64,000 nucleotides of DNA from Agrobacterium larrymoorei (GTDB lineage: Bacteria; Pseudomonadota; Alphaproteobacteria; Rhizobiales; Rhizobiaceae). The stretch is taken from assembly GCF_005145045.1 (NCBI RefSeq), contig NZ_CP039694.1, forward strand, positions 186,001 to 250,000, written 5' to 3'. The translations under genes were made by a program, and so were the position numbers. Positions 11,280-46,036 of the stretch are shown here, piece after piece. The notes beneath the pieces were generated by a model. That model was not told where the DNA came from and did not search any database. It saw nothing but the letters and a program-made list of their open reading frames with translations. Positions within the stretch are counted from its first letter, which is position 1. Each line of letters opens with the position of its first letter.

Positions 11280-12386
11280 TCAACCCAGATGGCAATTGTA
11301 GTACTTGAACCTCCCCATATGTATGAGCGGGTCATTCATTGTTTTCTTGGTTACACCTGCAAGGATCGGGGCCCAGGGTTTCAGGTAGGCTTCGCAGAGG
11401 AGTGGACCAACGATCTTCAGGATTTCGGGGTCGATGCCTGAAGTGTCAAGATCCTTGGTATCAATCACGTGAAAGGTCACCTCAAGGTCATTGGCGGATT
11501 CTTCAAAAAAAGTCTTTATATCCAGCATCCTGCCTCGGCTTCGATCTTCCGGAATGGTGAGAATGAAGCGCGGCTTTGTATTCCCACGCACAGTCTCCTT
11601 ATCCGCACGCACAGTCTCCACTACACTGTGGAAAAAGTCACTGGCCTGGATAGCATGTACATCGAACCCAAAGCGTTCCTCCAGAACACAAAGCCCGAAC
11701 GCACGCGGGACAAGTACGCCAGATCCCGAGGCTATGACATAAAGTGGGGTATCCTCTTTGAAGTCTTCAGCAAATGTGTGGCCCGCTGACATGCCCTTCA
11801 TTGCAGCATGAAGCAGTGCCGCTGGCAGCGCTTTCAAAGTTGATGCCAGAGCTGGCATAAACCTCCAAGTTTCCTTTTCTTCCAAAATACCGCCAGTAAA
11901 TGCTGCCATCAGCATGTGGGTAGCATGGAAAGCCTGGGTTGTTTCCTCGGCGAAGAACGCCATGTGGCCGTATGAGGCGAGCTTAGTGTCTGAGGACTTT
12001 GTAAAAACGACAGTTTTACAAGTTTTGTCCTGTAGAAGCTTCGCTGCTTCTACAGTTTCTGGAGTTCCACCAGACTTTGAAGACAGAATCACCAAAGTGT
12101 CTGAAGCATTAGCGATTGATGGGTTTTCCCCCATCAGGTCAACGAATGCCGAAGCAGCGTGGCTAGTGAATTGAAGGGTTTGTGCAGCCCCATCTGTGTA
12201 TGCGATCAAGCTTTCTCCGATCGCCAGCCCAGCGCCAGCGGATACAAAGAACACCTGCCTCAGTCCTAAGGCGGCTAGATCGCGCCCAGCTTTTGCGACA
12301 TCCTCAAGCTGCTCGATGGCGGGCTCAAGTTGTTTAGTAATCTTGGCTGCTGCGCCGTCTGCCGTGGGATTATAGAGAACGTCCAT
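11280..12386 (-). CDS. mas2: Mas2-like opine conjugase (SIS-domain)
   Basis: Two SIS sugar-isomerase domains are visible: the first with QVFFVSAGAGLAIGESLIAY and LVILSSKSGGTPETVEAAKL, the second with PLYVIASGSGVLVPRAFGLC. The fold is that of fructosamine-6-phosphate deglycases and of Mas2, the T-DNA enzyme that runs this chemistry in the synthetic direction to join a sugar and an amino acid (glutamine in mannopine synthesis). Its length (368), position and divergence from a mas1-like gene across about 480 bp match the mas2'-mas1' arrangement of octopine TR-DNA. A bacterial relative lies at 45014-46036 in the proposed catabolic operon. The amino acid substrate cannot be read from sequence. Confidence 0.8.
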   Translation of the reverse strand: MDVLYNPTADGAAAKITKQLEPAIEQLEDVAKAGRDLAALGLRQVFFVSAGAGLAIGESLIAYTDGAAQTLQFTSHAASAFVDLMGENPSIANASDTLVILSSKSGGTPETVEAAKLLQDKTCKTVVFTKSSDTKLASYGHMAFFAEETTQAFHATHMLMAAFTGGILEEKETWRFMPALASTLKALPAALLHAAMKGMSAGHTFAEDFKEDTPLYVIASGSGVLVPRAFGLCVLEERFGFDVHAIQASDFFHSVVETVRADKETVRGNTKPRFILTIPEDRSRGRMLDIKTFFEESANDLEVTFHVIDTKDLDTSGIDPEILKIVGPLLCEAYLKPWAPILAGVTKKTMNDPLIHMGRFKYYNCHLG

Positions 12387-12869
12387 CGTTCAGTGTATCG
12401 GCGTCGGTTATGAGATTTAGGTGCTAGTGTAACGTATTGGTAATTTGTGGACATAGAATACGAAGAGAGGCTATTTATCGTTTTGAAATAAGCAAAATGA
12501 CGTCACCGGTGAGCGTCGCGCCCATTTTTTTCTTACTGTAATACTGCGGTTTTGGCACGCCTTTGACTTTGGTGGTTTGGCACGTCAGATTATCTAGTCC
12601 TGAGTCATCAACGGCTGCGGATGGAGCGAAAGTCGCGATTACGACAAAACATCAGCGACAATTGAGTGCGGGCGGCATGTCCCACACGCGAATATGCGCG
12701 ACCTACGTAGAATAAACTTTAGGCCAATTCAAAAACCACGCGTCATGGCTTACGCATTACGTCGCAGAAGCTCAATATAAACAAGAGCCCGAAACATCAA
12801 AAATCAAAACACCGATATTCATCAATCTTATCAACCTCGCTCAAAATTTCTATCTTTCCACATTTGAAA
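12387..12869. promoter_or_regulatory. Dual divergent plant promoter (mas1'-2' type)
   Basis: 483 bases between divergent mas2-like and mas1-like genes, almost exactly the size I recall for the mas1'-2' dual promoter. Visible signals are TATAAAC at 12776 about 95 bases before the rightward ATG, CGATAAATAG (minus strand, about 12471-12480) about 85 bases before the leftward ATG, TGACGTCA at about 12497, and TTACGCATTACGTCG near 12752, which resembles an ocs-type element. These TGACG-class elements bind plant TGA factors in known opine promoters. Confidence 0.65.
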
Positions 12870-14069
12870 ATGCCAATTTCTCAGGCCTACCTCGGCTCTG
12901 CGAAGGCGCCCGCTGATCTCAAAAGTTTTTATTTCATCCGACATGGCGCGACAGACCTCAACGAGAAGGAAAAGGTCGTGGATGGTCAGAAATTCTGGGG
13001 CGTCCAAGGTTCCGGCACGAACAACAGTCTCAACGCAAGAGGGGAACGCCAGGCTTTGTTGGCCGGCAATGTTCTTCGATCGCTTCCGATAAGCGGTGTT
13101 GTCTGTTCACCGCTTTTACGTGCAATTCAGACGGCCTTCATCGCTAATCTGGGCTGCCCCAACTTCCAGATCGACGAAGATCTTCAGGAGCGGGATTTTG
13201 GAAAACACGAAGGTGGCTTCGGCCCACGTGAGATGTTTGAAGACGACTATTCCGATTGTGAAGAAACCGAGATTTTCTCAGTCCATGTCGCCAAGGCTCT
13301 GCAGCATGCACGTTCAGAAAACGTTCTGTTTGTCGCCCATGGAGGTGTGCTCAGGGTTGTCGCGGCACTGCTCGGAGTTCCTATAACAGACGAGCATACC
13401 GCCAATGGGCGTGTTCTACATTTCAGTCTCGATGCTAAGACCTGGTCCGTGCGGGTCATCGAAAGCCCTGTGGTAATGGTCAGCGGCGCAACTTGCGGCA
13501 TTGGCAAGGCCATTGCTGAAGACCTTATCGGGCACGGCTATAGAGTAAGTCTGGGTGCGCGCAACATTCAAGACCTAGAGGCGGCTTTTGGCGACCAGAA
13601 CGAAGCTCTTCACTATGCGCGTTTTGATGCTTTGGACCATAGCTCGATGAAAGATTGGGTGACCCAGACCGTCGAGAAATTTAAAAGGATCGACGGCTTA
13701 GTGAACAACACTGACTGTCGCGATCATGTTGACCTAGAGAAAGACACCGATCTTTCGCAGCTTCAACAGCAATGGGACATCAACTGTGCACCTTTCCTAT
13801 TGGCAAAGCTATGCATGCCTCATCTTCTTGAATCAGGTTATGGCCGCATCGTTAATCTTCACGCCATGGCGGGCCAACGTGTTCAGAATTCCTTGGCCGG
13901 CTACAACGTGATCAAGCGCGCGTTGGGCCATGGTGTAGGCGCCATTGATATATGCCTTGGTGTTGTCGCTACCGACATCAGTCCTTCGACGGATCCGATT
14001 GAGCTTGGGCATATCGCTAAGCTCGTTCGCGAGCAACTTGCGTGTTCTAATCTTGCGCACACTCGTTGA
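12870..14069 (+). CDS. mas1: Mas1-like phosphatase/reductase fusion, reductase half altered
   Basis: Two-domain protein like Mas1. Residues about 20-195 are a histidine phosphatase (FYFIRHGATDLNEKEK, SPLLRAIQTA, FVAHGGVLRV), the MocE-like half. Residues about 200-399 are a short-chain dehydrogenase, the MocC-like half, with SGATCGIGKAIAEDL, LVNNTDCRD and YNVIK. The phosphatase residues are intact. The dehydrogenase half looks damaged: the NNAG motif reads NNTD, the Ser before the Tyr-Lys pair is replaced (NLHAMAG), and after YNVIKRALGH the helix leading to IDICLGVVATDI is shortened. The total of 399 is about 30 short of Mas1. Reduction to a mannityl opine may therefore fail, leaving a deoxyfructosyl opine. 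Confidence 0.8.
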   Translation: MPISQAYLGSAKAPADLKSFYFIRHGATDLNEKEKVVDGQKFWGVQGSGTNNSLNARGERQALLAGNVLRSLPISGVVCSPLLRAIQTAFIANLGCPNFQIDEDLQERDFGKHEGGFGPREMFEDDYSDCEETEIFSVHVAKALQHARSENVLFVAHGGVLRVVAALLGVPITDEHTANGRVLHFSLDAKTWSVRVIESPVVMVSGATCGIGKAIAEDLIGHGYRVSLGARNIQDLEAAFGDQNEALHYARFDALDHSSMKDWVTQTVEKFKRIDGLVNNTDCRDHVDLEKDTDLSQLQQQWDINCAPFLLAKLCMPHLLESGYGRIVNLHAMAGQRVQNSLAGYNVIKRALGHGVGAIDICLGVVATDISPSTDPIELGHIAKLVREQLACSNLAHTR

Positions 14070-45004: not shown

Positions 45005-45013
45005 GTCGCTGCC

Positions 45014-46036
45014 TCAGTAGGTTGTTTTGAACATGTAGCGGCGGTCTGTCAGCAGGTGCCCGGTGACAGCTTGATAATGCTCGGCGAGGCGCTTCGAGAG
45101 CGTCGACAGAAGCATTGGAGAAATCTCACCGCGCATCGACGCGGGTACACCCGGCAGGCTGTAATCTTTGGAGTCGACGACCAAGCAGCGCTTGGTGTTC
45201 TTGTTAAGGAACGTTTCAACTCGATCGATCACGGCACGGGTGTCGTCTTCGCCCTTGAACAGCAGGACTGGCGTATCAGGCTGGACGACTTCGAAAGCGC
45301 CGTGGAGGAATTCGTTCGCATTGAACCAGGATGCATGCTTCCATTGCATTTCCATCAGATAGCACATGGCAAACCCGTACCCCGCGCCTTGGTTCGGTCC
45401 AGCGGAAAGGACATATGTGAACGGCTCGTGACCAAAGGCTTTGGCGATTTCGTGCAGATGAGCCTCTGCTTCCTGGATTGCCTTCTCAAAAGCGGCCGGT
45501 ACAGCGGCATAAGCCTGGTCGATTGTCGTAAAATCGAGTTTAGAACCAGCGGCCTTCAACAGCGCTGTGAGCATCAGGCCGATCAGAACCTGCTTCGGAG
45601 CAAGGATCGTGCGGTCGCTGTTATAGGTGAAGACCTCGTCACATTCCGCCGCGAGGTTGGTGCTGTCGTCCTTTGTGAATCCAATAACGTGGGCACCAGC
45701 GGCTCGCGCCCAGCGGGCGGCTTCGATCGTCTCTTTAGTCGTGCCGTTATGGGAGGCGACCAAGACAACCGACTTTGGACCGAGCAATGCAGGGCGGCGG
45801 CGATTGAACTCCTCGCTGTTGAAAATGAACGTCGGAAATTCAGCAGCACGATCTGCGAGGTATGATGCTGCCGAGAAATCGTTGTAGGAGCCACCGCAAC
45901 CAACAAGGAACAGGTTGCTCATGTTCTTGGCTGCTGTTTGTGCAACGGTGCTGATGCGCTCGCGCTGCGCAACAGCCGCCTCGGTGATACGGCGGAAATC
46001 GACGTCGGGCGAAACAAGGTTTGGGTAGTTTGTCAT
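45014..46036 (-). CDS. SIS-domain fructosamine-6-phosphate deglycase (FrlB-like)
   Basis: From the ATG at 46036, preceded by GAGGAG, the protein is 340 residues with two SIS domains (LFLVGCGGSYNDFSAASYLA; VVLVASHNGTTKETIEAARW; later FTYVLSAGPNQGAGYGFAMC) and a C-terminal RRYM motif typical of FrlB deglycases. Such enzymes split a phosphorylated Amadori compound into an amino acid and glucose 6-phosphate. It is the first gene of the leftward operon and faces a LacI-family repressor over two operators. It is related to the T-DNA mas2-like conjugase at 11280. Confidence 0.85.
   Translation of the reverse strand: MTNYPNLVSPDVDFRRITEAAVAQRERISTVAQTAAKNMSNLFLVGCGGSYNDFSAASYLADRAAEFPTFIFNSEEFNRRRPALLGPKSVVLVASHNGTTKETIEAARWARAAGAHVIGFTKDDSTNLAAECDEVFTYNSDRTILAPKQVLIGLMLTALLKAAGSKLDFTTIDQAYAAVPAAFEKAIQEAEAHLHEIAKAFGHEPFTYVLSAGPNQGAGYGFAMCYLMEMQWKHASWFNANEFLHGAFEVVQPDTPVLLFKGEDDTRAVIDRVETFLNKNTKRCLVVDSKDYSLPGVPASMRGEISPMLLSTLSKRLAEHYQAVTGHLLTDRRYMFKTTY

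What the first reader, a model, noticed from the sequence alone, without database searches (positions are those of the whole stretch)
11280..46036. Mirror-image gene pairs in T-DNA and catabolic region point to a second opine system
Two T-DNA opine genes have clear bacterial relatives in one operon: the SIS conjugase (11280) with the SIS deglycase (45014), and the M24-fold protein (14421) with the M24-fold protein (42973), which share NHRFFTGLDG, SPRIEA, WEEP and GIEPGVY. A third T-DNA gene, the nos-like dehydrogenase, has a distant relative at 21573. Known agropine/mannopine plasmids show the same logic (Mas2/MocD, Ags/AgcA). The catabolic set here uses a kinase plus deglycase instead of the moc oxidoreductases, implying an Amadori opine such as deoxyfructosyl-glutamine or its lactone chrysopine, alongside nopaline.
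Basis: partly seen in the sequence, partly recalled or inferred. Interest (0 to 1): 0.85.

Follow-up and report, generated by a model that had tools for sequence, protein, structure and literature searches.

The report
Chrysopine opine genes with dead reductase
This tumour-inducing plasmid carries genes that make transformed plants produce the sugar-amino-acid compounds chrysopine and nopaline and genes that let the bacterium eat them; that opine type was already known, but the sequence suggests that it arose from the agropine pathway when the middle enzyme lost its reducing half.

Summary
T-DNA genes at 11280 (SIS) and 14421 (M24) have relatives at 45014 and 42973 in one catabolic operon; all four quoted motifs are exact. 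The first 50,000 bases equal pTiAF3.44 of Agrobacterium larrymoorei. Its sister plasmid pTiAF3.10 is already classed chrysopine/nopaline (PMC10410297, passage), so the predicted opine is right but known. One premise is wrong: the octopine plasmid's catabolic SIS and PfkB genes are about 81% identical to these. The T-DNA M24 is no copy of the catabolic M24 (joint clade rejected, AU p 1e-103).

Its SDR centre is damaged in 10 of 10 loci with a ChsA gene (two lineages) and intact in 12 of 13 without one; phosphatase residues are kept in 31 of 31 proteins. In pTiChry5 a recombination junction falls inside this SDR centre. Losing the mannopine reductase would leave deoxyfructosyl-glutamine for ChsA to turn into chrysopine. 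A left-border candidate 3 kb outside the window gives a T-DNA of about 22.6 kb.

The parts
3050..8248 (.). T-DNA hormone genes: iaaH 3050-4408 (-), iaaM-like FAD oxidoreductase 4809-7055 (+), ipt 7529-8248 (+)
   Evidence: record annotation; the name iaaM is by position and recall
11280..12386 (-). mas2'-type SIS conjugase (makes deoxyfructosyl-glutamine or its 6-phosphate)
   Evidence: 71.5% to octopine pTi Mas2'; invariant E237 and H253 shared with the catabolic SIS proteins
12870..14069 (+). mas1' homologue: N-terminal histidine phosphatase (residues 20-196) with its catalytic residues; C-terminal SDR mannopine reductase damaged
   Evidence: Pfam; catalytic table; AF2 of window protein and octopine control
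13860..14069 (+). diverged SDR C-terminal lobe shared with pTiChry5-type plasmids; the Chry5/Bo542 junction lies at about 13883 in these coordinates
14421..15620 (-). chsA-type chrysopine synthase: M24 fold without the metal ligands, predicted to lactonise deoxyfructosyl-glutamine
   Evidence: 81% to pTiChry5 ChsA; 4 of 5 M24 ligand positions substituted
16361..17770 (+). T-DNA 'C protein'-like gene of unknown function
   Evidence: 36-48% to proteins on other Rhizobiaceae plasmids in the best 8 of 95 records listed, one annotated C protein; no Pfam or NCBIfam hit
17952..19112 (-). nopaline synthase-like dehydrogenase
   Evidence: 44.2% to the C58 D-nopaline dehydrogenase over 97%; Octopine_DH
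19533..19557 (+). right T-DNA border
   Evidence: core motif GRCAGGATATAT-N6-GTMA: 3 exact sites in the 5.26-Mb genome, all on this contig and strand
19556..19628 (+). 9.1 copies of an 8-bp repeat just outside the right border, possibly a transfer enhancer
   Evidence: the enhancer reading is inference
20464..32118 (.). nopaline catabolism and uptake region (ocd, octopine/nopaline-type dehydrogenase 21573-22655, arginase, FAD oxidoreductases, ABC transporter, LysR regulator)
   Evidence: annotation and similarity to C58-type plasmids
39034..42973 (-). ABC importer of the catabolic operon (permease, binding protein, ATPase), polyamine/opine type
   Evidence: same genes in pTiChry5
42973..44178 (-). 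catabolic M24 protein, predicted chrysopine delactonase (AgcA-like)
   Evidence: 54% to octopine pTi AgcA; same ligand loss
44186..45004 (-). PfkB kinase (MocE type), predicted deoxyfructosyl-glutamine 6-kinase
   Evidence: 81.6% to its octopine pTi counterpart; best NCBIfam fructoselysine 6-kinase, 165 bits, below the 247 cut-off
45014..46036 (-). SIS deglycase (MocD type)
   Evidence: 81.2% to its octopine pTi counterpart; PDB 3eua deglycase E 1e-50; best NCBIfam fructoselysine 6-phosphate deglycase, 107 bits, below the 430 cut-off
46180..47283 (+). LacI-family regulator divergent from the operon
37872..38576 (-). traR on the operon's strand, about 0.46 kb after its last gene
   Evidence: read-through is inferred

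Best explanation
The window holds a chrysopine/nopaline opine system. In the plant, the Mas2'-type SIS protein (11280) joins glutamine to glucose, most likely as glucose-6-phosphate, to give deoxyfructosyl-glutamine (DFG) or its 6-phosphate. The phosphatase half of the Mas1' homologue (12870) can remove the phosphate. Its reductase half, which in agropine/mannopine T-DNAs turns DFG into mannopine, is inactive. The metal-free M24 protein ChsA (14421) closes DFG to its lactone chrysopine. The nos-like gene makes nopaline. The bacterium imports the Amadori opines, opens the lactone with the catabolic M24 protein (42973), phosphorylates DFG with the PfkB kinase (44186) and splits it with the SIS deglycase (45014). 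Shown here: homologies, catalytic-residue states, gene order, junctions. Inferred: all reaction steps, the phosphate intermediate and the loss of reductase activity.
For: Plasmid line classed chrysopine/nopaline in print. ChsA 81%, catabolic cluster 93.8% to pTiChry5. The 8 PLSDB records with ChsA at 80% or more (band counts; all 8 seen) are the same 8 whose match holds the catabolic cluster at about 89% or more (best 30 of 140 records listed there). Mas1' table: 10 of 10 loci with a ChsA gene lack an intact SDR centre (window: Ser position and NAG motif changed, residues lost after the Tyr/Lys motif; the nine Chry5-type: Lys position changed; the Pro of the PG motif and the C-terminal tail lost in both types); 12 of 13 loci without ChsA are intact there, and 2 of 2 read later; phosphatase H, R, E, H kept in 31 of 31. 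AF2: window residues 332-353 and 363-375 below pLDDT 50 with a 5-residue helix, octopine Mas1' has a 24-residue helix at 344-367. Window against Chry5 at dS 0.52-0.67: dN 0.28 in the C lobe, 0.10 in the phosphatase, 0.085 in ChsA; 0 of 5000 permutations reach either difference. No MocC-like match above 36% in the own genome.
Against: The C lobe is not evolving freely: w 0.42 (0.19-0.91), so some constraint remained for part of its history, and against octopine its w (0.21) is not above that of the phosphatase (0.26). The ChsA-linked loci are few lineages: nine are one Chry5-type lineage (two of them, CFBP2788 and 2788, may be one strain), so the independent count is two, or three with P0083, whose neighbour genes were not seen. 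Mas1' is mosaic, so part of the divergence is replacement, not decay. The octopine control model also has a weak loop at 335-342. Damaged Mas1' genes exist without ChsA (CFBP5481; CFBP2177). Natural tobacco lines with expressed mas2' make DFG (PMC5606197, passage), so the phosphatase is not required. No enzyme was assayed.
Confidence: 0.8

Rival explanations
1. The Mas1' homologue still works as a reductase, with an unusual catalytic set, so tumours also contain mannopine and perhaps agropine.
For: The three Rossmann glycines are kept in every protein of the table that has an SDR, residues 201-335 evolve no faster than the phosphatase (876 of 5000 permutations), and w of the C lobe is below 1.
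Against: Different catalytic positions are changed in the window (Ser), Chry5-type (Lys) and P0083 (Asn); the lobe folds poorly in AF2; no MocC-like gene for mannopine use found; the M24 gene beside it is ChsA, not of the Ags clade.
Confidence: 0.1
2. The catabolic operon serves free DFG from rotting plant material, or mannopine-derived DFG, and its pairing with the T-DNA is incidental.
For: DFG occurs in decaying plants and other replicons catabolise it (PMC4231840, passage).
Against: ChsA and this cluster occur on the same 8 PLSDB plasmids; a delactonase gene would be pointless for free DFG (inference).
Confidence: 0.07
3. One reading: T-DNA opine genes are mirror copies of this plasmid's own catabolic genes.
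For: Shared families, motifs and invariant residues.
Against: Joint M24 clade rejected, AU p 1e-103; SIS pair only 22%.
Confidence: 0.05

Closest known systems
pTiChry5 chrysopine system (NZ_KX388536)
   Same: mas2', mas1' homologue and chsA in the same order and orientation; SIS-kinase-M24-ABC operon with divergent LacI; T-DNA proteins 71-81% and catabolic proteins 96-98% identical
   Different: here combined with nopaline genes on a 404-kb plasmid; the Chry5 mas2' and 5' mas1' are Bo542-like (98-100% and 94-100% in 200-bp windows) with a junction inside mas1'; a different SDR catalytic residue is affected; traR follows the operon here and none is annotated there in the stretch seen
pTi2788 / pTi_CFBP2788
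   Same: chrysopine/nopaline type by PMC10410297 passage; same T-DNA trio
   Different: Chry5-type T-DNA genes; a separate plasmid lineage (same passage)
Octopine and Bo542 mannopine/agropine systems (mas2', mas1', ags; mocD, mocE, agcA)
   Same: same three T-DNA genes and, in the octopine plasmid, the same SIS-kinase-M24 operon
   Different: intact Mas1' SDR centre, Ags in the AgcA clade; oxidoreductase genes next to the operon in the octopine plasmid
FrlB/FraB-type fructose-amino-acid 6-phosphate deglycases
   Same: 45014 matches PDB 3eua over most of its length, E 1e-50; kinase plus deglycase logic
   Different: below the NCBIfam cut-off for the fructoselysine enzyme; predicted substrate is DFG-6-phosphate from an opine

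Membership tests
Chrysopine-type opine system | ChsA-type M24 gene in the T-DNA | tested here: met
   81% to pTiChry5 ChsA, same clade 100/100
Chrysopine-type opine system | mas2'-type conjugase in the T-DNA | tested here: met
   71.5% to Mas2'
Chrysopine-type opine system | matching catabolic operon on the same plasmid | tested here: met
   93.8% DNA identity over about 9 kb to pTiChry5
Chrysopine-type opine system | chrysopine and DFG in tumours | not testable with these tools
   type label for pTiAF3.10 in PMC10410297 (passage); the original 1995 paper was not seen
Agropine/mannopine system | intact Mas1' mannopine reductase | tested here: not met
   SDR centre altered
Agropine/mannopine system | T-DNA M24 in the Ags clade | tested here: not met
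   placed in the ChsA clade
Agropine/mannopine system | MocC mannopine oxidoreductase | tested here: not met
   42 own-genome matches, all 36% or less; query taken as MocC by recall and no positive control run
Nopaline system | Nos in the T-DNA and a noc region outside the right border | tested here: met
   44.2% to C58 Nos; border at 19533 between them; noc similarity
M24 metallopeptidases | five metal ligands D, D, H, E, E | tested here: not met
   4 of 5 substituted in ChsA, Ags, AgcA and the catabolic M24; kept in P0061-P0063 (ligand set recalled)
Sugar-amine 6-phosphate deglycases (SIS) | catalytic Glu and His 16 residues apart | tested here: met
   invariant in 8 of 8 aligned SIS proteins; catalytic role recalled, two papers searched did not state it
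Histidine phosphatases, branch 1 | His-Arg-Glu-His catalytic set | tested here: met
   31 of 31 Mas1' proteins of the table; Foldseek match of the window model to 6e4b; residue roles recalled

The most novel reading that the evidence does not exclude
Amadori opines arose from mannityl opines by loss of one enzyme step. A cassette of the mas1' 3' end plus chsA replaced the 3' end of mas1' plus ags by recombination inside the reductase active site, so one event both swapped the lactonase and disabled mannopine formation. The phosphatase half of Mas1' was kept because Mas2' runs the deglycase reaction backwards and makes DFG-6-phosphate, so a forgotten phosphatase step belongs to the mannopine pathway of all agropine plasmids.
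Probability: 0.45. Interest if true: 0.65.

Novelty: new member of a known kind. Interest (0 to 1): 0.5.

Why it matters
It explains at gene level why chrysopine strains make DFG and chrysopine rather than mannopine and agropine although they carry a mas1' gene: in the loci read, the reductase half is damaged wherever ChsA sits beside it. It suggests that a whole opine class can change by one recombination in the T-DNA. It also predicts that mannopine synthesis in agropine plasmids passes through a phosphorylated intermediate, which can be tested with purified proteins.

Tried and rejected
Considered and rejected: the catabolic and T-DNA M24 genes as a recent duplication (AU test); the nos-like pair as evidence of mirror evolution (E 0.06); the C-lobe divergence as pure neutral decay (w 0.42, CI 0.19-0.91). 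Against octopine Mas1' the C half has w 0.21, not higher than the phosphatase half at 0.26, so the dN/dS signal rests on the window against Chry5 and on intact-intact pairs being lower (0.07-0.15 in the 4 of 6 pairs where it could be computed).

Rows left out: of 51 PLSDB records with at least 80% of Mas1' covered I examined 18 (16, two); the other 33 were not read, though most show the same identity value as an examined one. Of the two later ones, L-11 has all motifs sought; LBA1191 has the SDR motifs but its annotated frame lacks the phosphatase start, and its SIS and M24 genes are split as well, so sequence errors are likely. CFBP2177 (334 aa, most of the phosphatase missing, Pro at the Ser position) and Kerr27 (not read) are remnants on other plasmids and were left out of the table; CFBP2177 is a damaged Mas1' with no ChsA annotated in the stretch seen. 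CFBP5481 is in the table: damaged, no M24 gene in the stretch searched, cut short. Proteins without seen neighbours in that table: P0086, P0087, P0092, P0094, P0095 intact; P0083 and P0093 damaged; P0097 has no SDR. P0098 was only (catalytic Asn position is His). The 68-row M24 tree used 58 of the 81 proteins plus 10 plasmid proteins; P0001 (the window's own), P0057-P0060 and P0064-P0081 were not used.

Led nowhere: FraB papers for the catalytic residues; a search for mas1 with phosphatase in print; Pfam and NCBIfam for the 16361 gene.
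Full report
What the window is. Bases 1-50000 are identical, 50,000 of 50,000, to pTiAF3.44 of Agrobacterium larrymoorei (NZ_CP072169); bases 50001-64000 were not compared. The contig that holds the window is 404,101 bp, the size of pTiCFBP5473 (PMC8756689, table passage). NCBI lists AF3.10 as the A. larrymoorei strain equal to ATCC 51759; that CFBP5473 is the same strain is recalled. PMC8756689 (passage) says that this plasmid type occurs in CFBP5473 and AF3.44 only. 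PMC10410297 (passage) says that pTi2788 and pTiAF3.10 are both classed chrysopine/nopaline-type, citing Vaudequin-Dransart 1995, which I did not see. PMC8756689 lists the opine of pTiCFBP5473 as unknown. So the opine prediction was already in print by chemistry. In scripts and tables the row 'AF3.44' is the window's own sequence.

The observation. Positions, reading frames and motifs are as stated. The M24 pair is strong (46.6%, E 3e-104), the SIS pair is weak but significant (21.9%, E 7e-7), and the nos-like pair is not significant by BLASTP (E 0.06), although both fall in Pfam Octopine_DH.

Where the interpretation falls short. The octopine plasmid NC_002377 has, in the same order, a SIS protein, a PfkB kinase, an M24 protein and an ABC importer. 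The window's SIS and kinase are 81.2% and 81.6% identical to them. By recall of Kim and Farrand 1996 these are MocD and MocE, so kinase plus deglycase is not an alternative to moc but its lower half. What appears absent is the mannopine oxidoreductase: the octopine SDR that I take as MocC finds 42 own-genome matches, all 36% identical or less (no positive control was run). That fits an opine that is DFG itself.

The M24 enzymes. A 68-row tree puts the T-DNA ChsA proteins (window, Chry5) in a 9-row clade (100/99) with proteins named Fusarium and others of unknown source, the two plasmids' catabolic M24 proteins in an 8-row clade (84/100) with Mesorhizobium-type proteins, and the T-DNA Ags proteins next to AgcA (100/98). 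Holding the ChsA and catabolic M24 rows together costs 260 log units, p-AU 1e-103. The opine M24 proteins aligned have lost four of the five metal-ligand positions (ligand set recalled), so they are M24 folds without the peptidase metal site. ChsA-like proteins in fungi were noted before (PMC5606197, Table 3 passage).

The gene at 12870-14069 is a Mas1' homologue: histidine phosphatase residues 20-196, SDR residues 201-352. Octopine Mas1' aligns to SDR structures over its C-terminal half, and the Asn, Ser, Tyr and Lys positions were assigned from the SDR motif by recall. In a table of 31 proteins, phosphatase H25, R84, E107 and H157 are kept in 31 of 31. For 23 of them the neighbouring M24 gene was also tested: 10 of 10 loci with a ChsA gene have a damaged SDR centre (8 of 8 ChsA-bearing PLSDB plasmids at 80% identity or more, plus two GTDB genomes), and 12 of 13 without ChsA are intact; the exception, CFBP5481, carries the Chry5-type change and is cut short. 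Two more records without ChsA read later (L-11, LBA1191) have the SDR motifs; LBA1191 lacks the phosphatase start in its annotated frame. The changes differ: the window has other residues at Ser333 and in the NAG motif and has lost residues after the Tyr/Lys motif; Chry5-type proteins have another residue at Lys350; P0083 (named Agrobacterium vitis) has another residue at Asn305. All three have lost the Pro of the PG motif and the C-terminal tail. Because nine of the ten are one lineage, this is two or three independent lineages, not ten. CFBP2177, a remnant left out of the table, is damaged as well and has no ChsA annotated in the stretch seen.

Junction. Along mas2'-mas1'-chs/ags, Chry5 is 89-100% identical to Bo542 in 200-bp windows that begin up to 13678, then falls to 42-68% from 13875 on, while it is about 80-90% identical to the window across most of chsA. 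At sites where Bo542 and octopine agree against the window, Chry5 sides with Bo542 at 386 sites, with the window at 4 and with neither at 6 in the bins from 11280 to 13879; the next bins are mixed and chsA is window-like. The change falls near 13883, between the Ser and Tyr codons. The window against octopine shows deep divergence in the last part of mas1' (dS 2.98) but the window against Chry5 does not (0.64). The simplest reading is a shared cassette of mas1' 3' end plus chsA.

Selection and fold. Between the window and Chry5, with dS 0.52-0.70 in all T-DNA segments measured, dN is 0.28 in the C lobe, 0.13 in SDR 201-335, 0.10 in the phosphatase, 0.17 in mas2' and 0.085 in chsA. The C-lobe excess over the phosphatase and over chsA is reached by 0 of 5000 permutations each; SDR 201-335 is not in excess (876 of 5000). 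w of the C lobe is 0.42 (0.19-0.91), so it is relaxed, not neutral. Against octopine the C-half w is 0.21, against 0.26 for the phosphatase. AF2 models from 14 and 15 aligned sequences: the window protein has pLDDT below 50 at 332-353 and 363-375 and a 5-residue helix there; octopine Mas1' has a 24-residue helix at 344-367 with block means 68-86, though its loop 335-342 is also below 50. Foldseek finds both an alpha-ribazole phosphatase and SDR structures for the window model.

Mechanism. Mas2' shares an invariant Glu and His with the catabolic SIS proteins, so it may run the deglycase reaction in reverse with glucose-6-phosphate; the phosphatase half would then free DFG. P0097, a 235-residue protein with only the phosphatase half, and P0093, with a damaged SDR, fit a phosphatase that is useful alone, but their origin is unknown. 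Against a strict need, tobacco lines with expressed TB-mas2' make DFG (PMC5606197, passage). Without the reductase DFG accumulates and ChsA closes it to chrysopine. In the bacterium the operon 46036-39034, next to a divergent LacI-type gene, imports and degrades it. traR follows the operon on the same strand after about 0.46 kb; a 97% identical second traR lies elsewhere on the contig. The terminator-like sites in the region are no more than shuffles give (10 against a mean of 9.3). PMC6341043 (passages) shows DFG as the inducer of transfer of pAoF64/95, so an Amadori-opine trigger here is plausible but not shown.

T-DNA borders. The motif GRCAGGATATAT-N6-GTMA has three exact sites in the 5.26-Mb genome, all on this contig and strand: C4:114231, 182952 and 205534; with up to two mismatches there are 6, against 4 for the backward-read control. 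The last exact site is window 19534. The middle one lies 3.05 kb left of the window, with IS66 genes on both sides and vir-related genes farther left. That gives a T-DNA of about 22.6 kb. PMC8756689 (passage) reported a predicted T-DNA of about 93 kb holding all vir genes and named, as one possibility, a border it could not identify; site 182952 is a good candidate for it.

Novelty. The opine type and, by recall of the Shao 2018 abstract, replacement of ags by the chrysopine synthase gene are known. I found no statement on the Mas1' reductase of chrysopine plasmids in the listings and passages seen; the searches were made, and one search lists 20 of 21 papers with a word beginning chrysopine, several of them on lacewings. 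Many listed papers were not opened. Shao 2018 and Baek 2003 are not held and the 1995 papers were not seen, so the claim of novelty is limited to that library.

Noticed in passing
L029 and G001:C68:1-60000 (Mesorhizobium sp. GbtcB19, NZ_JAGXJY010000016.1, 145,607 bp): A contig named Mesorhizobium carries a mas2'-mas1'-M24 set in T-DNA order (40%, 49% and 39% to the window; M24 63% to AgcA; a TauD-type gene lies between), a GDPD gene, border-like sites at 24.5 and 26.5 kb, and VirB4, VirB8-11, VirC2, VirD2 and VirE2-like genes, most below the curated cut-offs: a possible Ti/Ri-like element outside Rhizobiaceae. Genome-wide border matches at up to 3 mismatches (13) are hardly above the control (10). 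No paper holds the strain name. Contamination or misnaming was not excluded.
   Followed up: partly
G000:C4:182952-182973 (3.05 kb left of window start) and window 19534: Candidate left and right borders giving a 22.6-kb T-DNA, against the T-DNA of about 93 kb predicted in PMC8756689.
   Followed up: partly
G000:C4:114231-120533; L045:7306-13608: Possible second T-DNA of about 6.3 kb: an exact border, a GDPD gene (agrocinopine synthase-like), a trehalose-6-phosphate synthase gene 88% identical to one on Rhizobium etli and related plasmids, an IS3, and a one-mismatch border followed by TTTGTTTGT. Whether the trehalose gene is expressed in plants is unknown.
   Followed up: partly
window 37872-38576 and G000:C4:98451-99152: Two traR genes, 97% identical; the window copy follows the Amadori operon, so transfer may respond to chrysopine or DFG.
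   Followed up: partly
window 19556-19628: 9.1 copies of an 8-bp unit directly outside the right border, reminiscent of repeat-type transfer enhancers of Ri plasmids (recalled).
   Followed up: no
P0006, P0008, P0057, P0060: ChsA relatives, 45-62% identical, in proteins named Fusarium, Dactylonectria and Ipomoea batatas; P0006 and P0008 lie in the clade that holds the T-DNA ChsA, P0057 and P0060 were not in the tree. Fungal cases are in PMC5606197 Table 3 (passage).
   Followed up: no
P0097 and P0093: Mas1'-like proteins with the SDR half gone or damaged and a shared odd C-terminal tail, from unnamed contigs.
   Followed up: no
L010:12001-13083 (CFBP5481): A Chry5-type mas1' cut short right after the Tyr/Lys motif, with no M24 gene in the stretch searched and a fragment of the catabolic SIS gene beside it.
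   Followed up: no
L046 (pTiLBA1191): mas2', mas1' and ags are all split or cut in the annotation of this record, probably sequence errors.
   Followed up: no
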